A stretch of 64,000 nucleotides of DNA, taken from Albula goreensis (taxonomy: Eukaryota; Chordata; Actinopteri; Albuliformes; Albulidae). Positions within the stretch are counted from its first letter, which is position 1. Each line of letters begins with the position of its first letter. Below are positions 18,368 to 59,985 of the stretch, piece after piece. Location: positions 7,549,144 to 7,613,143 of the forward strand of contig CM040764.1 in NCBI GenBank assembly GCA_022829145.1, written 5' to 3'. The notes under the pieces were generated by a model, which saw only the letters and a list, made by a program, of their open reading frames with translations, was not told the origin of the DNA and did no database searches. The translations under genes were made by a program, and so were the position numbers.

Positions 18368-19222
18368 CAAGTAATCACTTTAATTTGGCAGAACCAGTGC
18401 TCGTGCCGTGGGTTAGACTGCTCGACAGAACCAGTGCTCGTGCCGTGGGTTAGACTGCTCTACAGAACCAGTGCTCGTGCCGCAGGTTAGACTGCTCTAC
18501 AGAACCAGTGTTCGTGCGGCAGGTTAGACTGCTCTACAGAACCAGTGTTCGTGCGGCAGGTTAGACTGCTCTACAGAACCAGTGCTCGTGCGGCAGGTTA
18601 GACTGCTCTACAGAACCAGTGTTCGTGCGGCAGGTTAGACTGCTCTACAGAACCAGTGCTCGAGCCGTGGGTTAGACTGCTCTACAGAACCAGTGTTCGT
18701 GCGGCAGGTTAGACTGCTCTACAGAACCAGTGTTCGTGCGGCAGGTTAGACTGCTCTACAGAACCAGTGCTCGTGCCATGGGTTAGACTGCTCTACAGAA
18801 CCAGTGTTCGTGCGGCAGGTTAGACTGCTCTACAGAACCAGTGCTCGTGCCATGGGTTAGACTGCTCTACAGAACCAGTGCTCGTGCGGCAGGTTAGACT
18901 GCTCTACAGAACCAGTGTTCGTGCGGCAGGTTAGACTGCTCTACAGAACCAGTGCTCGTGCCGTGGGTTAGACTGCTCTACAGAACCAGTGCTCGTGCCG
19001 TGGGTTAGACTGCTCTACAGAACCAGTGCTCGTGCCATTGTAGGGGCCTGTAGGTGAGTGTGTTTACCTGCACAGAGGTACACTCAGGCCTGTGTAGGGG
19101 CCTTTAGGTGAGTGTGTTCACCTGCACAGAGGTACACTCAGGTCTGTGTAGGGGCCTTTAGGTGAGTGTGTTTAGCTGACTCTTGTCTTTGCCTCGTTCT
19201 TCTTTTCACAGGTCACACAGCG
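18368..19222 (+). repeat. Element E, middle copy
   Basis: It starts with ttaatttggcagaaccag, as the left copy does, then carries a 37-bp minisatellite array, about two and a half 54-bp units, and the tcttttcacaggtcacac junction. At that point an L2-type LINE end replaces the rest of the element. Confidence 0.7.
18391..19038 (+). repeat. 37-bp minisatellite, ~17.5 units
   Basis: The unit has the core gaaccagtgctcgtgc followed by ggttagactgctctaca. Two subtypes alternate irregularly, with either 'gtgcggcagg' or 'gtgccgtggg/ccatggg' in the variable block. The first and last units are of the second subtype. The array lies inside element E; the left copy of E lacks it. Confidence 0.9.
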
Positions 19223-19989: not shown

Positions 19990-20449
19990 AAATTGTCAAC
20001 TGGAGCTCTTATCTTCCAGAGAACTTCCAGGGGGAAACCACTACAATGCCCCCTCCCTGGGTACGGCAGCAGCAGAGATGGACAACGGGGAGGAGGGCCC
20101 ATCTTCCATACCCCTCCTCCCCTTCCAGGCCATCACTGACCCCAGAGCATCACCACTGCTGGCCCTGGAGGGCCGCCTAAGACCACTGCCTGAGGCCTAC
20201 ATCCTGACCTGTGAGTATGATGTGTTGCGGGACGATGGTGTGATGTATGCCACGCGCCTGCGGAAGGCCAGGGTTAATATCACACACAGACACTATGGAG
20301 CCAGTTTCCACGGTGCCCTCATGTTCACCGTCAGGCCCACGGAATTCCAGATTGCACACCATATGACTGAGGACTACATTGCCTGGCTGGGAAAATCTGT
20401 TAGGCCCACATCAAAAACTAAGAGAGCAAAAGAGCCTGGTCAGAATTAG
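19990..20449 (+). pseudogene. Arylacetamide deacetylase-like (AADAC/AADACL4 family) last-exon remnant
   Basis: The family hydrolyses neutral lipids and acetamides in the ER membrane, using a Ser-Asp-His triad. Here only the C-terminal third is visible. VNWSSYLPENF (about 19995-20030) is in one frame; TDPRASPLLALEG, then LTCEYDVLRDDGVMYATRL and FHGAL, are in another, ending in a stop at 20447-20449. The acidic RDDG block and the FHG histidine of the triad region are kept. The GDSAG nucleophile elbow and the HGGG oxyanion motif are not found upstream. The two frames meet near a GGGGG run at about 20030, so either a one-base frameshift or a sequencing error is present. Repeats lie directly upstream. 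A decayed fragment is likelier than a working gene. Confidence 0.75.
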
Positions 20450-22289
20450 AGATTAAAAAAGTTCATCTTACAACTTTATCAAGTAACAAGCCTACTCACA
20501 GTTGACCTTAAAATAATAGTTGACAAACAACTGCAGGACAGTGAGTTTGAGTTGGATTCGGCAAATTGAATTAGCTATCAACAAATGTTTCAAAACTCGG
20601 TAGTTCACACTGAAAATAAGATTTTCTGAAAACGCAAAAACTGATCACGTTTTTATCCAAACTGGCACTGAGGACCCATCCCCTTCTCCTGGTGCCGCTG
20701 AGAGGCCACCGCAGAGAGTGTGTTTGGAAAGATAGGCAGAGTCTGGGATTCATTCAGCGTTTGTCTGTGGCTCACAGTTCAATATGAGTGTTTGTATCCT
20801 GACAGGTTTGATGAGTTCAGCAATCATGAAAATTAACTCGCCAAACTGTTCTTGTCAAGAAACGCAAGATACTCCATTTCAGTTGTTCACAAAAGTTGAA
20901 GACGAACTTTGATTGAATCCTGAACAGTGTTTTTTCCCGTCACACTTTCATTTTTTTAAAAAAAGTGTGAGACTACAAAATATTCTGTAATATTCAGGAA
21001 CTGTAACTAATGCAACTATGTTCAATTTCTTTCTAATGTGATGTACATTCTGTATGTTAAACATTGTTTTTTTGACACTGCATATGAATACAAAGGTTAA
21101 TGTTGCATTGTCTTACTATTTTTCCTGGTTGTTAATAAACAAAAACATTCTTCATCGCGTGCCCACAGTCATGTTTAGGTATAATGAATGTGAGAACGTA
21201 AGTACAGATTTTTGTGGATATCGTTAAGTCCGGGGTTGATTCACTGAGACCCAAAATAAAAGGTGTTAAAGTGTGTGTAAACCAAAAGTGGTAGCCCATA
21301 CCATCTTTGTGGATGACCAAGTAAAAACAATTTTGTTAACCATGTCAGCTGCTAACAGCCATACTTAAAGCGTAAAGGGTTCTCAGGCATACAGCTGGTT
21401 TAAAATAGCACTTATAAAAATATTAGAATGCTTTACCACACTTTCAGTAATTAACCTGTAACAGGTGTCTGTGTACTCACTTCCTGTAGTGATTGGCTCT
21501 TATATCCCATTTTCCCCTGCAAGTCAAGAAAATAAGTGCTTTTTTGTGTGCACCATTATTTCAAAACTCTATGTTGTGTGCTCAAACAATCCCAGTTTCT
21601 GAAGGGCTATTGAACATGTTCTGCTTTCAGTGCACCCATGTAAAAGGAAACTTGCCAAAGAGATTAAGATTTGTTGAATACAGCTGGCACAGCAGAAATG
21701 GACCAATCTCATCTCTCCTCCTTTCTTTGCATGGGTTTTGTCCAGTGTGCTGTTCAAGTGGGCATAGGTGCCAGCCACATAAGTTTGAGGGACTCTGGCA
21801 CAGTGGGATTGACTGCCATTCACACTGGGAGAGGTTATGAGTTCAAATCTATGTCACACCCAAGCAAGATACACAGATAAACCAGTTATATAGGATTCAT
21901 TGCAATAGTAACCATCAGTGGGCTTAGTTTTACTTGAACTCCTCAACCGATTCAGTTGGCATTTTTAAGAAGTATTCAATGCTTGATTGCTAAATCTGAG
22001 AGAAAACTTGGAATATAGGCTGACAACTCATATGTAATATTCAGGACTGGTACCCTGCAGGTGACAGGACAAAATCTTGCACACTTACCTGCTGGTAATA
22101 TTTCTGTGGGTGGTAAAATGAAAATATGGTGGACGGCAGGGTTGATTATGGGAATCACACCACCTGAGCTTCATGCCCTGTTTCAGTCTTTAAAACACTC
22201 AAACATTAGGCCACACATGAGCCTTCTTAGAAATGACTGCCACCTGTAACTGGAGGTTTGAGATACCAACCAATCAATGGAACCAATAA
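20450..22289. other. Non-coding stretch, no gene seen
   Basis: AT-rich DNA downstream of the esterase remnant. The only structured piece is a tRNA-headed repeat near 21796-21880. Confidence 0.5.
21796..21880 (+). repeat. tRNA-derived SINE-like head
   Basis: A box A-like ggcacagtgggattgac is followed about 40 bp later by a box B-like GAGTTCAAATC. The same layout is seen at 29056-29130. The body of the SINE is not clear. Confidence 0.5.
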
Positions 22290-23520
22290 ACGTGAGTTTA
22301 CGAACCTGCAGTGCTCACAGTACCCAGCAGAGGGAGACACAATACCTGTGGGACAAATATCAGCCAGCAGAGGGAGACATAACACATGCAGTACACAAAG
22401 GTGCCAGCAGAGGGAGGCTCAAGACCTGCAGCGCACACAGTAGCCAGCAGGGGGAGACTGAAGGCCTGCAGTGTAAGTAACACCTGCAATATACACATGA
22501 ACCAGCAGAGGGTGACAATACCGGAATCACACACAGTCTGCAGAGGGAGGCACAACACCTGCAATACACAAGGGTTACAGCAGAGGGAGCCATTACATCT
22601 GCAGTTCACAAGGGTGCCAGCAGTACACAGAATAACCAGCAGAGGGAGGCATGACACCTGCGGTACACCCAACAGCCAGGAGAGGGAGACATAACACCTG
22701 CAGTACACAAGGGTGCCAGCAAAGGGAGCCATAGTACCTGCAGGACACAAGGTAGCCAGCAGAAGGAGAAGCAAAACCTGCAGAATAAATAGCGGCCAGC
22801 AGAGGGAGATATAACACCTGCAATACACACAGTAGCCAGCAGAGGGAGACACAAGACCTGCATGCAGTATAAATAGCAGCCAGCAGAGGGCGACAACACC
22901 TGCAATATGCACAGTAGCCAGCAGAGGGAAACACAAGTCCTGCATGCAGTATAAATAGCAACCAGCAGAGGGTGACAACACCTGCAATACACACGGTAGC
23001 CAGCAGAGGGAGACACATGACCTGCAATGTCAACAGCAGCCAGCAGAGGAAAACATAACACCTGCAATATAAACATGAATCAGCAGAGGGCGACATCACC
23101 TGAAATACACACAGTAGCCAGCAGAGGGAGACTCAAGACCTGCGGTATAAATAGCAGCCAGCAGAGGGCGACAACATCTGCAATACACACAGTAGCCAGC
23201 AGAGGGAGACTCAAGACCTGCGGTATCAATAGCAGCCAGCAAAGGGCGACAACATCTGCAATACACACAGTAGCCAGCAGAGGGAGACACAAGACCTGCA
23301 TGCAGTATAAATAGCAGCCAGCAGAGGGCGACAACACCTGCAATACACACAGTAGCCAGCAGAGGGAGATGCAAGACCTGTCATATAAAGAGCAACCAGC
23401 AGAAGGAGACATAACAACTGCAATATTAACATTAACCAGCAGAGCGTGGCAACACTTGCAATACACAGTCGCCAGACGAGAGAGAGTATAAATACCAGCT
23501 AGCAAAGGGAGACAGAAAAT
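22290..23520 (+). repeat. ~39-bp satellite array of CTCF-like motifs, about 30 units
   Basis: Almost every unit contains GCCAGCAGAGGG followed by AGACA or CGACA, then ccTGCAatacacac or a similar spacer. All are on the plus strand. From about 22830 to 23380 the units pair into a 77-78 bp higher-order repeat. One half has 'agtagccagcagagggaga' and the other 'agcagccagcagagggcga'. The core matches the CTCF consensus (CCASYAGRGGGC) best in the GGGCGACA units. Long minus-strand open frames here, rich in LCWLL, come from the repeat and are not genes. Confidence 0.9.
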
Positions 23521-23792
23521 CTACATTACATACACACAATGCCCTCTTAATTAATTGAAAACAGTTTCACCAAAACATTTTAATCTATAGTAATTCATAA
23601 TTATTATTGTTTACCTGCTCTTTCAACTAGGTTCTTTTTAATGACTCTGTTATATTCATTTTCAAATACAGCAAAAGCACAGTAACACAAAGAGGTTCAT
23701 ATTTGCACATTTAAAACAAGCGTTTATGACTCTATGAGCGATCGACAAGTTTCCCGTCAGGCTCTTGACTGTTCTGTTGTAGTGACATTTTA

Positions 23793-23810
23793 TGGCCAGC
23801 AGGGGGAGAC
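23793..23810 (+). promoter_or_regulatory. Isolated CTCF-like motif
   Basis: TGGCCAGCAGGGGGAGAC lies about 270 bp beyond the array. It fits the CTCF core well except for A in the GGGCG part. Confidence 0.4.
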
Positions 23811-24063
23811 ACATTCCCAATTTGTACACAATTGTTCTGTCCCATTATTCCGCCTGGTCTCGAACTGCAAACTTGCATCGTTGAGTCCAATAAAATGTAG
23901 GATGTTGATTGATGGGGAAGTGGCAGGGATGTAACACTCGCCTTACATCCATCAAGTTGTGAGTTCAGTTCTTGAGGACTGATCCCAGTCTACATTTTTA
24001 TCTCTGAAGCAAGGAAATGACTGATTTCTACACAGCTTTTCCCAGGTGGTGTAAAGAAAAAAA

Positions 24064-24420
24064 ATGCCCTCTCTCTCTCTCCCTCTTGCTCGCCCTCTCT
24101 CTCCCTCGCTTGCCCCCTCTCTCTCTCTTGATCTCTCAATTTCAATTTGCTTTATTGGCAGGACAACAAAAGTCACATTGCCAAAGCAACATACAAAATC
24201 ACAAAACAACATATTAACAACAATGCAAAGTGTCATTTACAATGCTTAAGATAACTAAACATAACAAAGACAAGGAAAAATAAATAAAGAAATATACATA
24301 TACACACATACATTATAAGTATTCATATACCTACACATACATACACACACATATACCTACATCTACACATACACAGACATACATATATGCATATTCTCTC
24401 TCTCTCCCTTGCTCTCCTTC
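24064..24420 (-). mobile_element. LINE 3' tail with GA-rich end, copy 1a
   Basis: On the minus strand, gctttggcaatgtgac and gccaataaagcaaattg are followed by a GA-rich tract (CT-rich on the plus strand). This matches the 3' end of the LINE at 33590-33655. Only untranslated tail sequence is present. Confidence 0.7.
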
Positions 24421-26509: not shown

Positions 26510-28985
26510 GAAGAACTTGAGGCAACTTCAGACATAAAAAAGCTGAGAGGTATTGACCAGCTCTTCCAATTCAAAGGTTGTAAGTTCAAGGCTAGCTTAA
26601 CTGCTTCTTTTAGCATAGTTATCATCACTGTTGCACTGCATAGAATAAGTTGGGACAACTTTTTATGCCATGAAGCCTTGGATGAGAGGTATTGACTAGC
26701 TTTCCCGATTCAAAGGTTGTAAGTTCAAGGCTAGCCTGACTGCTTCTTTTTGCATAGTTATCATCATTGTTGCACTGCACACAAGAACTTGAGACAACTT
26801 CACACACCAAGAAGCCTTGGATGAGAGGTATTGACCAACTCTCCCAATCCAAAGGTTGGAAGTTCAAGGCTAGCCTAAATTCTTCTTTTAGCATAGTTAT
26901 CATCATTGTTGCACTGCATAGAACAAGTTGGGACAACTACAAACACCAAGAAGCCTTGGATGAGAGGTATTGACTAACTCTCCCAATTCAAAGGTTGGAA
27001 GTTCAAGGCTAGCCTAAATGCTTCTTTTAGCATAGTTATCATCATTGTTGCACTGCATAGAACAAGTTGGGACAACTTCAAACACCAAGAAGCCTTGGAT
27101 GAGAGGTATTGACTAACTCTCCCCATTCAAAGATTGGAAGTTCAAGGCTAGCCTGACTGCTTCTTTTTGCATAGTTATCATCATTGTTGCACTGCACACA
27201 AGAACTTGAGACAACTTCACACAACAAGAAGCCTTGGATGAGAGGTATTGACCAGCTCTTCCAATTCAAAGGTTGGAAGTTCAAGACCAACTTACCCACT
27301 TCTTTTAGCATAGTTCTCATCATTGTTGCACTGCACACAAGAACTTGAGACAACATCAGACACCAAAAAGCTTTGGATGAGAGGTATTGACCAGCTCTTC
27401 CAATTCAAAAGTTGGAAGTTCAAGGCCAGCTTACCTGCTTCTTTTTGCATAGTTATCATCATTGTTGCACTGCACACAAGAACTTGAGACAACTTCACAC
27501 AGCAAGAAGCCTTGGATGAGAGGTATTGACCAGCTCTTCCAATTCAAAGGTTGGAAGTTCAAGACCAACTTACCCACTTCTTTTAGCATAGTTCTCATCA
27601 TTGTTGCACTGCACACAAGAACTTGAGACAACCTCAGACACCAAAAAGCCTTGGATGAGAGGTATTGACCAGCTCTCCCAATCCAAAGGTTGGAAGTTCA
27701 AGACCAGCTCATCTGCTTCTTTTAGCATAATTATCATCATTGCTGCACTGCACAGAAGAAGTTGAGACAACTTCAGACACCAAGAAGCCTGAGAAGAGAG
27801 GTATTAGCCAGCTCTCCCAATTCAAAGGTTGTGTGTTAAAGACCAGCTTACCTGCTTCTTTTACAATAGTTGTCATCATTGTTGCACTGCATAGAAGAAG
27901 TTGAGTCAACTTCAGACCCCAACAGGCCTTGGATGAGCGGTATTGACCAGCTCTTCCAATTCAAAGGTTATGGGTTCAAGGCCAGCTTACCTGCTTCTTT
28001 TAGCACAGTTATCATCATTGTTGCACTGCATAGAACAAGTTGAGACACCATCACACACTAAGAAGCCTTGGATGAGAGGTATTGACCAGCTCTTCCAAAT
28101 CAAAGGTTATGGGTTCAAGGCCAGCTTACCTGCTTCTTTTAGCACAGTTATCATCATTGTTGCACTGCATAGAACAAGTTGAGACACCATCACACACCAA
28201 GAAGCCTTGGATGAGAGGTATTGACCAGCTCTTCAAAATCAAAGGTTGGAAGTTCAAGACCAGCTCATCTGCTTCTTTTAGCATAGTTATCACCATTGTT
28301 GCACTGCATAGAACAAGTTGAGACACCATCACACACTAAGAAGCCTTGGATGAGAGGTATTGACCAGCTCTTCCAATTCAAAGGTTATGGGTTCAAGGCC
28401 AGGTTACCTGCTTCTTTTAGCATAGCTATCATCATTGTTGCACTGCATAGAACAAGTTGAGACACCATCACACACTAAGAAGCCATGGATCAGAGGTATT
28501 GACCAGCTCTTCCAATTCAAAGGTTATGGGTTCAAGACCAGCTTACCTGCATCTTTTAGCATAGTTATCACCATTGTTGCACTGCATAGAACAAGTTGAG
28601 ACACCCTCACACACTAAGAAGCCTTGGATGAGAGGTATTGACCAGCTCTTCCAATTCAGAGGTTATGGGTTCAAGGCCAGGTTACCTGCTTCTTTTAGCA
28701 TAGCTATCATCATTGTTGCACTGCATAGAACAAGTTGAGACACCATCACATACTAAGAAGCCTTGGATGAGAGGTATTGACCAGCTCTTCCAATTCAAAG
28801 GTTATGGGTTCAAGGCCAGCTTACCTGCATCTTTTAGCATAGTTATCATCATTGTTGCACTGCATAGAACAAGTTGAGACACCATCACACACTAAGAAGC
28901 CTTGGATGAGAGGTATTGACCAGCTCTTCCAATTCAAAGGTTATTAGTTCAAGGCCAGCTTACCTGCTTCCTTTAGCATAGTGAT
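26510..28985 (+). repeat. 139-bp satellite, 18 units, with tRNA-like pol III boxes
   Basis: Units start at about 139-bp spacing (gaggtattgac near 26551, 26690, 26828 and on to 28911). Each carries a box A-like TGGATGAGAGG. About 45 bp later comes a box B-like stretch, which in the right-hand units is GGTTCAAGGCC, an exact fit to GGTTCRANNCC. A TTTT follows about 20 bp on (cttcttttagc). Left-hand units mostly have AGTTCAAGGCT. The unit core aligns with tRNA-headed repeats elsewhere in the window. Minus-strand open frames here come from the repeat. Confidence 0.9.
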
Positions 28986-29055
28986 CCTCTATGTTTTGTG
29001 TGGCTATTGTCAGACATATGATTGAAAAAGGGATAAAGAGAGCTCTCAAATGCGA

Positions 29056-29130: not shown

Positions 29131-30039
29131 GAGCAACGAATGGGGGAGGTGTGGATATCTCCCCCAAGCGCAAGCGAGGTGTGAGTGCGAGTGTGAGTGT
29201 GTGTGTGTGTGTGTGAGTGAGTGTGTGAGTGAAGGAGGGGGGAAACGGTGTGGGCCCCCCCCCGAGGTTTCCGGAAGTGGAAACAGGGGGTTATGCTTAT
29301 GCACCTGGTGAGTGTGTATGTATTTGTTTTTATCTCTGTCCGTGTCCCTTTAGAGATGATGCAAGGCCATCCCTTCCCCACCCCCAATTGGGGGCGCCAT
29401 GACATTTTCAAGAACAGTAACCTGGGTCACATGACTCCTCACATGACCCCAAGTTAGAGCTCTGGAAAATGTCATGCCACCCCCAATGTCTTACAAAGAC
29501 AGTGGGATACGTACCTGCCGTCCGTCTGCGCTGGCACGGCCTCCCTCCACCTGCAAGGCGGTCTCTCCCCTCCGTGTCTTCAGACAGCACACCTGACAAA
29601 AAGCACACACACACACAAAGAAGCAACGTTTCAACCCTACACCTCAAAATGGCAAAAAACGAGCATCTCTTATACCTCAGAGGTCCTGACATTTGCTCTG
29701 TCTGGGGCTGGTCAGGCAGAAACATTGTGGACCTCAGCATGTGAAAACAGCCATCCCCTGCAGCAGAAGCAGAGAAAAAGAGCACACGGGTGTTCTCCTG
29801 AATGTTTTCTCCTGATGTGTAATTGAGAGCCAACCAACAGCACCTTCATTCCTACAGGGGACCCAATGGAAGGTGGAGATTTACCCAGCTGGCACAGGGA
29901 TGGATGGGGTCTGTGACAATGGTCACCAGTGAAAGTGGAGCCAGTCGCTCTGCTGTGTGACCTGTGAAAAGAAGAAAGAGGCAAAGACAAGAGTCAGCAA
30001 AACACACTCACCTACTGGCCCCTACACAGGCCTCAGTGT

Positions 30040-31216
30040 ACCTCTGTGCAGGTAAACACGCTCACCGACAGGCCCCGATACAGGCCTGAGTGTACTTCTG
30101 TGCAGATAAACACATTCAGCTCCAGGCCCCTACACAGGTCTAAGTGTAACTCTGTGCAGATAAACACACTCACCTATAGGCCCCTACACAGGCCTGAATG
30201 TACCTCTATGCAGGTAAAAACACTCACCTAAAGGCCCCTTCACAGGCCTAAGTGTAACACTGTGAAGATAAACACACTCACCTACAGGCCCCTACACAGG
30301 CCTGAGTGTACCTGTGTACAGGAAAACACACTCACGTACAGGCTCCGACACAGGCCTGTGTGTACCTCTGTGCAGGTAAACACACTCACCTAAAGGCCCC
30401 TACAAAGGCCTGAGTGTACCTCTGTGCAGGAAAAAACACTCACCAACAGGCCTCTACACAGGCCTGAGTGTACCTGTGTGCAGGTAAACACACTCACCTT
30501 AAGGCCCCTACACAGGCCTGAGTGTACCTCTGTGCAGATAAACACACTTACCGACAGGCCCCGATACAGGCCTGAGTGTACCTCTGTGCAGATAAACACA
30601 TTCAGCTCCAGGCCCCTACACAGGTCTAAGTGTAAGTCTGTGCAGATAAACACACTCACCTACAGGCCCCTACACAGGCCTGAATGTACCTCTATGCAGG
30701 TAAAAACACTCACCTAAAGGCCCCTACACAGGCCAAAGTGTAACTCTGTGCAGATAAACACACTCACCTACAGGCCCCTACACAGGCCTGAGTGTACCTG
30801 TGTACAGGAAAACACACTCACGTACAGGCTCCGACACAGGCCTGAGTGTACCTCTGTGCAGGAAAACACACTCACCTAAAGGCCCCTACAAAGGCCTGAG
30901 TGTACCTCTGTGCAGGTAAACACACTAACCTACAGGCCCCTACAAAGGCCTGAGTGTACCTCTGTGCAGGAAAAAACACTCACCAACAAGCCTCTACACA
31001 GGCCTGAGTGTACCTCTGTGCAGGTAAACACACTCACCTAAAGGCCCCTACACAGGCCTGAGTGTACCTCTGTGCAGATAAACACACTCACCGACAGGCC
31101 CCGATACAGGCCTGAGTGTACCTCTGTGCAGATAAACACATTCAGCTCCAGGCCCCTACACAGGTCTAAGTGTAAGTCTGTGCAGATAAACACACTCACC
31201 TATAGGCCCCTACACA
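30040..31216 (+). repeat. 54-bp minisatellite with a higher-order repeat
   Basis: The unit contains ggcctgagtgtacctctgtg, then caggtaaacacactcacc and aggcccctacaca. About 22 units precede the gap. A marked variant (gacaggccccgata) recurs at 30067, 30553 and 31093. These steps of 486 and 540 bp are nine and ten units. Because 54 is divisible by three, long open frames appear in it; they are not genes. Confidence 0.9.
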
Positions 31217-40319: not shown

Positions 40320-40475
40320 AAACAGGAGCCAGTAGAGAGAGGCACTGCACCTGCAATCTAGAGAGCAGCCAGCAGAGGGATACACCTGCACAACAAATAG
40401 GAGCCACCAGAGGGAGACACTGAACTGTCAGTACACAGAGCAACCACCGGAAGAAGAAAATGCCTGCAGACACTA
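40320..40475 (+). repeat. Short array of CTCF-like units, about four copies
   Basis: Units ggagccagtagagagaggc, agcagccagcagagggatac, ggagccaccagagggagac and gcaaccaccggaagaaga occur at about 35-45 bp spacing with cctgca spacers. This is the same satellite family as 22290-23520. Confidence 0.75.
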
Positions 40476-58311: not shown

Positions 58312-58769
58312 ATCATCATGGCTTCAATTTTAGGGTGGTTGGGGGGGAAGATGTTTCACCATGGACCGCCGACCCCGCGAACCCAGCTCAGGGAAAGCGA
58401 ACACGTGTTCATAGCCCAGCCGAGCAAACAAAACCAAACAAAACGCCTGGTCTGCATCTGGCCCGACAGCAGTTAAAAGAGCTGCTAGAAGAACTGATAC
58501 AGACAATGTGACTTTTTGATAGAGTGAAACTCAGAATGCCCATGGTCTATAAAAGTTAAGGCACATAGCAAACATGTAGCAGGCTCAGAGCGTCTTTGTT
58601 CACGCTGTGTTAATAGATTTGAAAACGGGTCTCTGGATCTCATTACCTCCGCGCGCTTTCAGGCTGCTCTCTGGAGAGGAGCGTCCGAGCCCATCCACCC
58701 GCCACACCCAATCAGAGATCAAGGGAACAGTGTACTTCAGTCTGCTGTTCTACAGCCTCATTCTGGACC

Positions 58770-59985
58770 CTGCACTCTACTGCCCCCCACCTCACTATTA
58801 CCCCTGCACTCTACTGCCCCACACCTCACTATTACCCCTGCACTCTACTGCCCCACACCTCACTATTACCCCTGCGCTCTACTGCCCCCCACCTCACTAT
58901 TACCCCTGTGCTCCACTGCCCCCACCTCACTATTACCCCTGTGCTCCACTGCCCCCACCTCACTATTACCCCTGTGCCTTACTGCCCCCACCTCACTATT
59001 ACTCCTGTTCTCTACTGCCCCCACCTCACTATTACCCCTGTGCTCTACTGCCCCACACCTCACTACTACCCTTGTGCTCTGCTGCCCCACACCTCACTAT
59101 TACCCTTGTGCTCTGCTGCCCCACACCTCACTATTACCCTGTGCTCTACTGCCCCCACCTCACTATTACCCCTGTGCTGTACTGCCCCACACCTCACTAT
59201 TACCCCTGTGCTGTACTGCCCCTCACCTCACTATTACCCCTGTGCTCTACTGCCCCAAACCTCACTATTACCCCTGTGCTCTACTGCCCCACACCTCACT
59301 ATTACCCCTGTGCTCTCCTGCCCCACACCTCACTATTACCCCTGTGCTCTACTGCCCCCCACCTCACTATTACCCCTGTGCTCTACTGCCCCACACCTCA
59401 CTATTACCCCTGTGCTCTACTGCCCCCACCTCACTATTACCCCCTGTGCTCTACTGCCCCCACCTCACTATTACCCCTGTGCTCTACTGCCCCAAACCTC
59501 ACTATTACCCCTGTGCTCTACTGTCCCCCACCTCACTATTACCCCTGTGCTCTCCTGCCCCACACCTCACTATTACCCCTGTGCTCTACTGCCCCCACCT
59601 CACTATTACCCCTGTGCTCTACTGCCCCACACCTCACTACTACCCCTGTGCTCTACTGCCCCCACCTCACTATTACCCCTGTGCTCTACTGCCCCCACCT
59701 CACTATTACCCCTGTGCTCTACTGCCCCCACCTCACTATTACCCCTGTGCTCTACTGCCCCACACCTCACTATTACCCCTGTGCTCTACTGCCCCACACC
59801 TCACTATTACCCATGTGCTCCACTGCCCCCACCTTACTATTACCCCTGTGCTCTACTGCCCCCACCTCACTATTGCCCCTGTGCTCTCCTGCCCCCACCT
59901 CACTATTACCCCTGTGCTCTACTGCCCCTCACCTCACTATTACCCCTGTGCTCTACTGCCCCACACCTCACTATTACCCCATTCG
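58770..59985 (+). repeat. 35-bp C-rich minisatellite, about 35 units
   Basis: The unit contains tgtgctctactgcccc, then acctcactattacccc, with length variants of 34-36 bp. No unit contains a stop in any forward frame, so open frames of 323-469 codons overlap through the whole array. G is scarce on the plus strand, and C runs of 4-6 recur every 15-20 bp. I see no splice or start context that argues for a protein. Confidence 0.9.

What the first reader, a model, noticed from the sequence alone, without database searches (positions are those of the whole stretch)
22290..23520. Array of about 30 CTCF-like motifs built from a ~39-bp satellite
Seen directly: GCCAGCAGAGGG recurs about 30 times, all on one strand, with 38-40 bp spacing and a 77-78 bp higher-order period. 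Known: the vertebrate CTCF core is close to CCASYAGRGGGCRS. The GGGCGACA units (for example near 22879, 23155 and 23314) fit best; those with GGGAGAC fit less well. Inferred: such an array could recruit many CTCF molecules, act as a one-directional loop anchor, and change strength with copy number.
Basis: partly seen in the sequence, partly recalled or inferred. Interest (0 to 1): 0.75.

Follow-up and report, generated by a model that had tools for sequence, protein, structure and literature searches.

The report
Chromosome-specific minisatellite of CTCF sites
A probable fish chromosome carries many head-to-tail arrays whose short repeat unit looks like one complete docking site for the genome-folding protein CTCF, which could make it a natural test of how stacked CTCF sites fold DNA.

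Summary
The array is real: about 31 units at 22,304-23,520, all on +; 27 pass a recalled CTCF matrix at p<1e-4, 26 at p<1e-5, 13 at p<1e-6. The unit is more than a core: TGCA lies exactly 14 bp before the core in 20 of 28 units, the upstream motif and 5-bp linker of published CTCF sites. The window's genome is held (932 Mb). The family sits on contig C24 (25.8 Mb): 51 of 51 hits of a strict unit pattern, at least 472 of 517 tandem core pairs, 41 arrays. In 23 array clusters (776 units) core positions vary 3.4%, the linker 20%; motif changes arise but spread less (p=1.5e-4, pseudoreplicated). Against a purely CTCF-driven story: a neighbouring 54-bp minisatellite is also nearly C24-specific, so a duplicated module spread; unrelated minisatellites with a CTCF core per unit exist on other contigs; binding is untested. 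Best reading: a minisatellite grown from one bipartite CTCF site, probably bound in part and acting as a one-way cohesin barrier; a new variant of DXZ4/FIRRE-like CTCF repeats.

The parts
22304..23520 (+). Minisatellite of about 31 units of mostly 38-40 bp; each unit = upstream TGCA[A/G]TA module, 5-bp linker, core CCAGCAGAGGG
22863..22895 (+). Strong unit (33-bp footprint, core GGGCGACA, 21.9 bits)
23141..23173 (+). Strong unit (33-bp footprint, core GGGCGACA, 21.9 bits; upstream module TGCGGTATA)
23301..23333 (+). Strong unit (33-bp footprint, core GGGCGACA, 21.9 bits)
40326..40419 (+). Short diverged array of the same unit (3 hits at p<1e-4: 40326, 40366, 40401)
   Evidence: matched by the array query (C24:7589460-7589600)
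20300..22289 (.). Upstream flank, pieces of it shared with other C24 arrays (16.75, 8.745, 10.298, 16.068 and 13.11 Mb among others)
23527..24137 (.). Downstream flank shared with other C24 arrays; its first part (23560-23906) matched only C24 in the listed hits
26544..28986 (.). 139-bp tandem repeat, also present beside the array at 8.37 Mb (L009)
30000..31216 (.). 54-bp minisatellite; 55 of 57 genome matches on C24

Best explanation
The array is a minisatellite whose 38-40 bp unit is one complete bipartite CTCF site: an upstream TGCA[A/G]TA module (read by zinc fingers 9-11), a 5-bp linker and the core CCAGCAGAGGG (read by fingers 3-7). Shown: the sequence match, the spacing, the one-strand orientation, the lower variability of motif positions, and the near-restriction to contig C24, where it travels with a duplicated and often inverted module. 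Inferred: CTCF binds at least some units, most likely the GGGCGACA units and perhaps alternate units, because the footprint nearly fills the period. Being all in one direction, the array then acts as a strong one-way barrier to cohesin whose strength varies with copy number. Inferred: the family arose from one CTCF site by tandem duplication and was spread along C24 by segmental duplication.
For: 27 of about 31 units pass p<1e-4 and 26 p<1e-5. TGCA at the exact offset in 20 of 28; same layout as sites used or measured in published work (passages). A strict bipartite pattern in this genome has 10 hits, 9 with a gap of 8-10 bp; the array has 8. 3 of 60,000 shuffles of the unit reach its core score, 52 of 60,000 the upstream match. 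Core varies 3.4% against 19.9% in the linker; core below linker in 23 of 23 clusters. Motif variants spread less. Two ctcf-like genes with conserved fingers. Core word 23,586 times against 3,092 for its backward control, so CTCF-type sites abound in this genome.
Against: No binding data. Consensus has A at core position 15 where CTCF prefers C. Period 38-40 bp may not let neighbours bind together. Conserved A columns outside the motif (10, 12, 15, 35, 37) are as constrained. Insertion events are also frequent in the upstream module (102 of them after columns 1-8). Rank of the true register is 1st of 80 only when arrays are pooled, 2nd-11th in the 8 single arrays. The 54-bp minisatellite of the same module is also nearly C24-specific, so chromosome restriction says nothing about CTCF. 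Motif words in minisatellites off C24 are not clearly commoner per site than a reversed control word.
Confidence: 0.55

Rival explanations
1. Fossil minisatellite: it descends from a CTCF site but is now neutral (nucleosome-covered, methylated, too dense or too weak to matter), and homogenisation by unequal exchange alone keeps the core alike.
For: It travels with other minisatellites in a C24 module; arrays at 3.39 and 4.68 Mb have about 10% core divergence; unrelated CTCF-core minisatellites exist elsewhere, so such arrays arise without special need.
Against: Homogenisation alone should not spare core and TGCA columns against the linker in 23 of 23 clusters, nor make motif variants spread less than others.
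Confidence: 0.33
2. The motif is read by another zinc-finger protein (a PRDM9-like or lineage-specific one), or the CTCF likeness is coincidence.
For: Conserved A columns and ACC before TGCA lie outside the known CTCF motif.
Against: Two-part match at the right spacing. An E-box (CACCTG) reading is weak, because the base before ACCTG varies between A, C and G (column 36).
Confidence: 0.06
3. The array is coding or a tandem promoter.
For: Open stop-to-stop frames of up to 243 aa on the minus strand; TATAAATAG recurs in the B units of the window.
Against: Units of 38-40 bp with variable length keep no common frame; frames are open in several minus-strand registers, as expected from few stop words. 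TATAAATAG is in none of the 23 cluster consensus units, and TATAAATA in only 2 of them.
Confidence: 0.03

Closest known systems
DXZ4, FIRRE and ICCE CTCF tandem repeats of the mammalian X (passages of PMC6985041 and PMC8662614; abstract start of PMC3491370 in the listing)
   Same: Tandem repeats with a CTCF motif per unit, restricted to one chromosome, several loci on it, variable in copy number.
   Different: Those are large units (about 4.5 kb in cats) that are GC- and CpG-rich and methylation-controlled; here the unit is 38-40 bp, is itself the site, and is CpG-poor. Sex linkage unknown.
Tandem CTCF insulator sites of Pcdh, Igh and beta-globin clusters (passages of PMC7087399)
   Same: Several same-direction CTCF sites in a row.
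   Different: Those are separate regulatory elements at promoters and enhancers, not a satellite.
Single bipartite CTCF insulators such as the IL3 site (passages of PMC12885311)
   Same: Upstream module plus core with a typical 5-bp linker; reported as high-affinity, insulating sites.
   Different: A single site, not the unit of a minisatellite.
Other CTCF-core minisatellites of the same genome, for example C13:0.444 Mb and C18:25.95 Mb
   Same: A strong core in a 36-40 bp unit, with a TGCA 6 bp further on.
   Different: Unrelated sequence, one locus each in the listed hits; not spread along a chromosome.

Membership tests
Vertebrate bipartite CTCF binding site | Core motif above matrix threshold | tested here: met
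   27 of about 31 units p<1e-4, 26 p<1e-5 with a recalled MA0139.1
Vertebrate bipartite CTCF binding site | Upstream module at 5-6 bp linker | tested here: met
   TGCA at the exact offset in 20 of 28 units; literature passages
Vertebrate bipartite CTCF binding site | Bound by CTCF | not testable with these tools
   No binding data; two ctcf-like genes exist
DXZ4/FIRRE-type CTCF macrosatellite | CTCF motif in each tandem unit | tested here: met
DXZ4/FIRRE-type CTCF macrosatellite | Multi-kilobase unit | tested here: not met
   unit 38-40 bp, higher-order 78 and 356 bp
DXZ4/FIRRE-type CTCF macrosatellite | CpG-rich, methylation-switched array | tested here: not met
   CpG o/e 0.19; 17 of 28 footprints without CpG; methylation itself not testable
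DXZ4/FIRRE-type CTCF macrosatellite | Sex chromosome location | tested here: inconclusive
   All unit-pattern hits on C24; identity of C24 unknown; one AMH match, on C13
Minisatellite family | Tandem, homogenised units, several loci with differing copy number | tested here: met
   41 arrays of 116-3,273 bp on C24; variation between individuals not testable
Loop anchor / cohesin barrier | Directional contact stripe or insulation | not testable with these tools
   No Hi-C data

The most novel reading that the evidence does not exclude
C24 carries a chromosome-wide network of CTCF-site satellites that folds this one chromosome differently from the rest, as DXZ4 and FIRRE do on the mammalian inactive X; and CTCF binding itself favours the units that keep the motif (motif variants arise but fail to spread), so the satellite perpetuates its own binding site.
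Probability: 0.12. Interest if true: 0.85.

Novelty: new variant of a known kind. Interest (0 to 1): 0.6.

Why it matters
If bound, these arrays are a natural dosage series of same-direction bipartite CTCF sites, from 3 to about 80 at one locus, on one chromosome. They would allow tests, without engineering, of how stacking, orientation and spacing at the limit of the CTCF footprint set barrier strength. They would also show that a genome-folding protein's site can become a satellite whose evolution is biased by the motif. If unbound, they show how easily motif arrays mislead.

Tried and rejected
Sex-chromosome idea: an AMH family search found one match, on C13; this neither supports nor excludes C24 as a sex chromosome. 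Species: two library searches for the assembly size gave nothing useful. Contig C25 reaches at least 23.7 Mb, so perhaps about 25 chromosomes; that it is a fish is my inference from the finding's vertebrate-like content, genome size and LINE type, not a test.

Chromosome-scale polarity: large + arrays lie left of 19.13 Mb and large - arrays right of it; size-weighted permutation p=0.04, random strands p=0.054, unweighted p=0.98, post hoc, so not claimed. Neighbouring arrays within 25 kb are convergent 11, tandem 3, divergent 3 of 17; inverted duplication (537-nt arms at 99%; 2.2 kb at 91%) explains the inversions without selection on loop direction.

'CTCF sites become minisatellites more readily than other words': on contigs before C24 the listing shows 73 pair hits at 32 loci, 13 of them with two or more pairs (my count), against 5 hits at 2 loci for the reversed word. 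But the single word is itself 7.6 times commoner than its control, so there is no clear excess per site. The tool's own backward-control column (32) disagrees with the direct count (5); I used the direct count.

Coding, promoter and E-box readings: see rivals. RNA families: none at gathering threshold in the window, in 9 fetched loci or in 17. tRNA: none in the window. Pfam on 10 of the 76 window open frames of 100 aa or more: one hit, Abhydrolase_3. Literature searches for a minisatellite with a CTCF site per unit: none among the papers listed; the listings were capped at 20 of 65 and 15 of 554, and the library lacks most subscription papers.

Full report
OBSERVATION. At 22,304-23,520 the window holds about 31 tandem units, all on +, mostly 40 or 38 bp apart, with a 78-bp higher-order period at 22,620-23,444. 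CCAGCAGAGGG occurs there 17 times exactly and 27 times with at most one mismatch; the whole window has 37 such matches against 1.05 expected. With the matrix MA0139.1 (recalled from memory) 27 units pass p<1e-4, 26 p<1e-5, 13 p<1e-6; outside the array the window has 8 further hits at p<1e-6, where about 0.13 are expected from the p-value itself.

ANATOMY. The unit is a whole bipartite site. In 28 units examined, TGCA lies exactly 14 bp before the core in 20. The layout TGCA[A/G]TA.., 5 bp, core equals that of sites used in a DNA-curtain study (passage of PMC11194110), is near the upstream optimum found by Spec-seq (TGCAATCCC, TGCAATACCC; passages of PMC10287918) and has the typical 5-bp linker (passages of PMC12885311). 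In this genome a strict bipartite pattern with a free gap of 2-16 gave 10 hits; 9 have a gap of 8-10 bp from TGCARTNCC to CCASYAG; the array has 8. Of 60,000 shuffles of the unit 3 reach its core score, and 52 have 7 or more of 8 upstream matches beside their best core. Seventeen of 28 units have no CpG in the 33-bp footprint; array CpG o/e is 0.19 against 0.36 in the rest of the window. So methylation could touch only a minority of units, among them the strongest (GGGCGACA).

GENOME CONTEXT. The window lies in a 932-Mb genome at C24:7,549,144-7,613,143; C24 is 25.8 Mb. The array query matched 77 places, all on C24 (a lower bound by the tool's own note); merged, they are 41 arrays totalling 39.7 kb, 23 on +. 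The strict unit pattern has 51 hits, 51 on C24. Tandem pairs of the exact core word: 517 in the genome; 457 in the C24 DNA that I fetched plus 15 further C24 rows listed = 472; 9 on C13 and C16; 36 not placed, because the listing was cut. The pattern search does reach other contigs. In the 275 kb of C24 DNA fetched, which does not cover all 41 arrays, 30 clusters of 3 or more hits hold 703 core hits at p<1e-5. A 34-bp minisatellite of the window has no such spread: its own locus and weaker matches (64-78% identity) on nine other contigs and at C24:8.84 Mb. But the 54-bp minisatellite 6.5 kb downstream has 55 of 57 matches on C24, and the flanks of the array recur with it. So what spread on C24 is a composite module, often inverted.

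CONSTRAINT. I aligned 23 array clusters (those with 8 or more hits, of 30; 776 units) by wraparound dynamic programming. Difference from each cluster's own consensus: core positions 4-14, 3.4%; TGCA, 4.9%; linker columns 9-13, 19.9%; core positions 1-3, 25.7%; columns 33-36, 19.3%. The core is below the linker in 23 of 23. Indel events: 270 in the 10 columns after the footprint, 383 in the other 30, of which 102 are insertions after columns 1-8, in the upstream module; so indels avoid the core more than the upstream module. In 18 clusters (15 or more hits, of 30) variants seen in one unit only number 110 in core plus TGCA.T columns and 222 elsewhere; variants seen in two or more units 95 and 358; Fisher p=1.5e-4. 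Motif changes arise but spread less. Limits: related arrays are not independent; conserved A columns outside the motif (10, 12, 15, 35, 37) behave the same way (49 private, 26 shared); and the rank test of conservation against matrix information puts the true register first of 80 when arrays are pooled, but 2nd to 11th in the 8 single arrays, and 3rd for the bipartite model on mean entropies.

READER PROTEIN. Two ctcf-like genes lie on C1 and C15. The core word CCASYAGRKGG occurs 23,586 times against 3,092 for its backward control, as expected where CTCF sites are used genome-wide.

OTHER CTCF-CORE MINISATELLITES. A looser pair pattern gave 652 hits; 497 lie in the C24 DNA fetched. The 73 rows listed on contigs before C24 fall at 32 loci, 13 with two or more pairs (my count): unrelated units, most of about 32-46 bp, for example C13:0.444 Mb (36 bp, core 21.6 bits, TGCAGCTTT at 6 bp) and C18:25.95 Mb (40 bp, 23.8 bits, TGCAGCTCA at 6 bp). 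Of the 13, I scored 12 (not C7): 8 reach 16.9 bits or more and 4 score 11.9 or less. The reversed word gave 5 hits at 2 loci. Given the 7.6-fold excess of the single word, this is not a clear excess per site. So CTCF-core minisatellites are not unique to C24; their scale on C24 is.

MECHANISM. Shown: bipartite match, spacing, orientation, uneven constraint, chromosome restriction. Inferred: CTCF occupies a subset of units; since the period is close to the footprint, neighbours may exclude each other, and the alternation of stronger (C at position 15) and weaker (A) units at 78 bp would fit alternate occupancy, which is speculation. Because CTCF stops cohesin mainly from one side (established knowledge), a one-strand array should be a one-way barrier. 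Whether it matters for any gene is unknown: the only coding exon that I recognised nearby is an Abhydrolase_3-type exon at 19,991-20,446.

KNOWN THINGS. It works, if it works, like DXZ4/FIRRE/ICCE and like tandem CTCF insulators (passages), but it fails two features of a DXZ4-type macrosatellite, unit size and CpG richness. Searches of the held library listed no paper describing such a minisatellite.

Noticed in passing
19991-20446 (+): Exon-like frame matching Abhydrolase_3 (arylacetamide-deacetylase type by my recognition); partial copies near the C24 arrays at 16.746 and 8.7456 Mb among the fetched loci.
   Followed up: partly
30000-31216 and 19039-19178: The same 54-bp minisatellite in opposite orientations; 55 of 57 genome matches on C24.
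   Followed up: partly
C24:13.114-13.116 Mb (L034 2102-3830) and C24:4.678-4.686 Mb (L017): Palindromes whose arms include the CTCF arrays: 537-nt arms at 99% and a 2.2-kb arm at 91%.
   Followed up: partly
C13:443990-444432, C18:25952205-25952295, C2:13296074-13296240, C22:1248168-1248334 (G000): Independent minisatellites with a strong CTCF core per 36-40 bp unit, unrelated to the C24 family.
   Followed up: partly
C1:29.893-29.898 Mb and C15:25.503-25.506 Mb (G000): Two ctcf-like genes, possibly retained genome-duplication paralogues.
   Followed up: partly
22833-23353: B units of the window array contain TATAAATAG just before the core; not kept in the consensus of other arrays.
   Followed up: partly
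58768-59980: 34-bp minisatellite (36 copies) with a 505-aa stop-free frame; weak relatives on many contigs.
   Followed up: no
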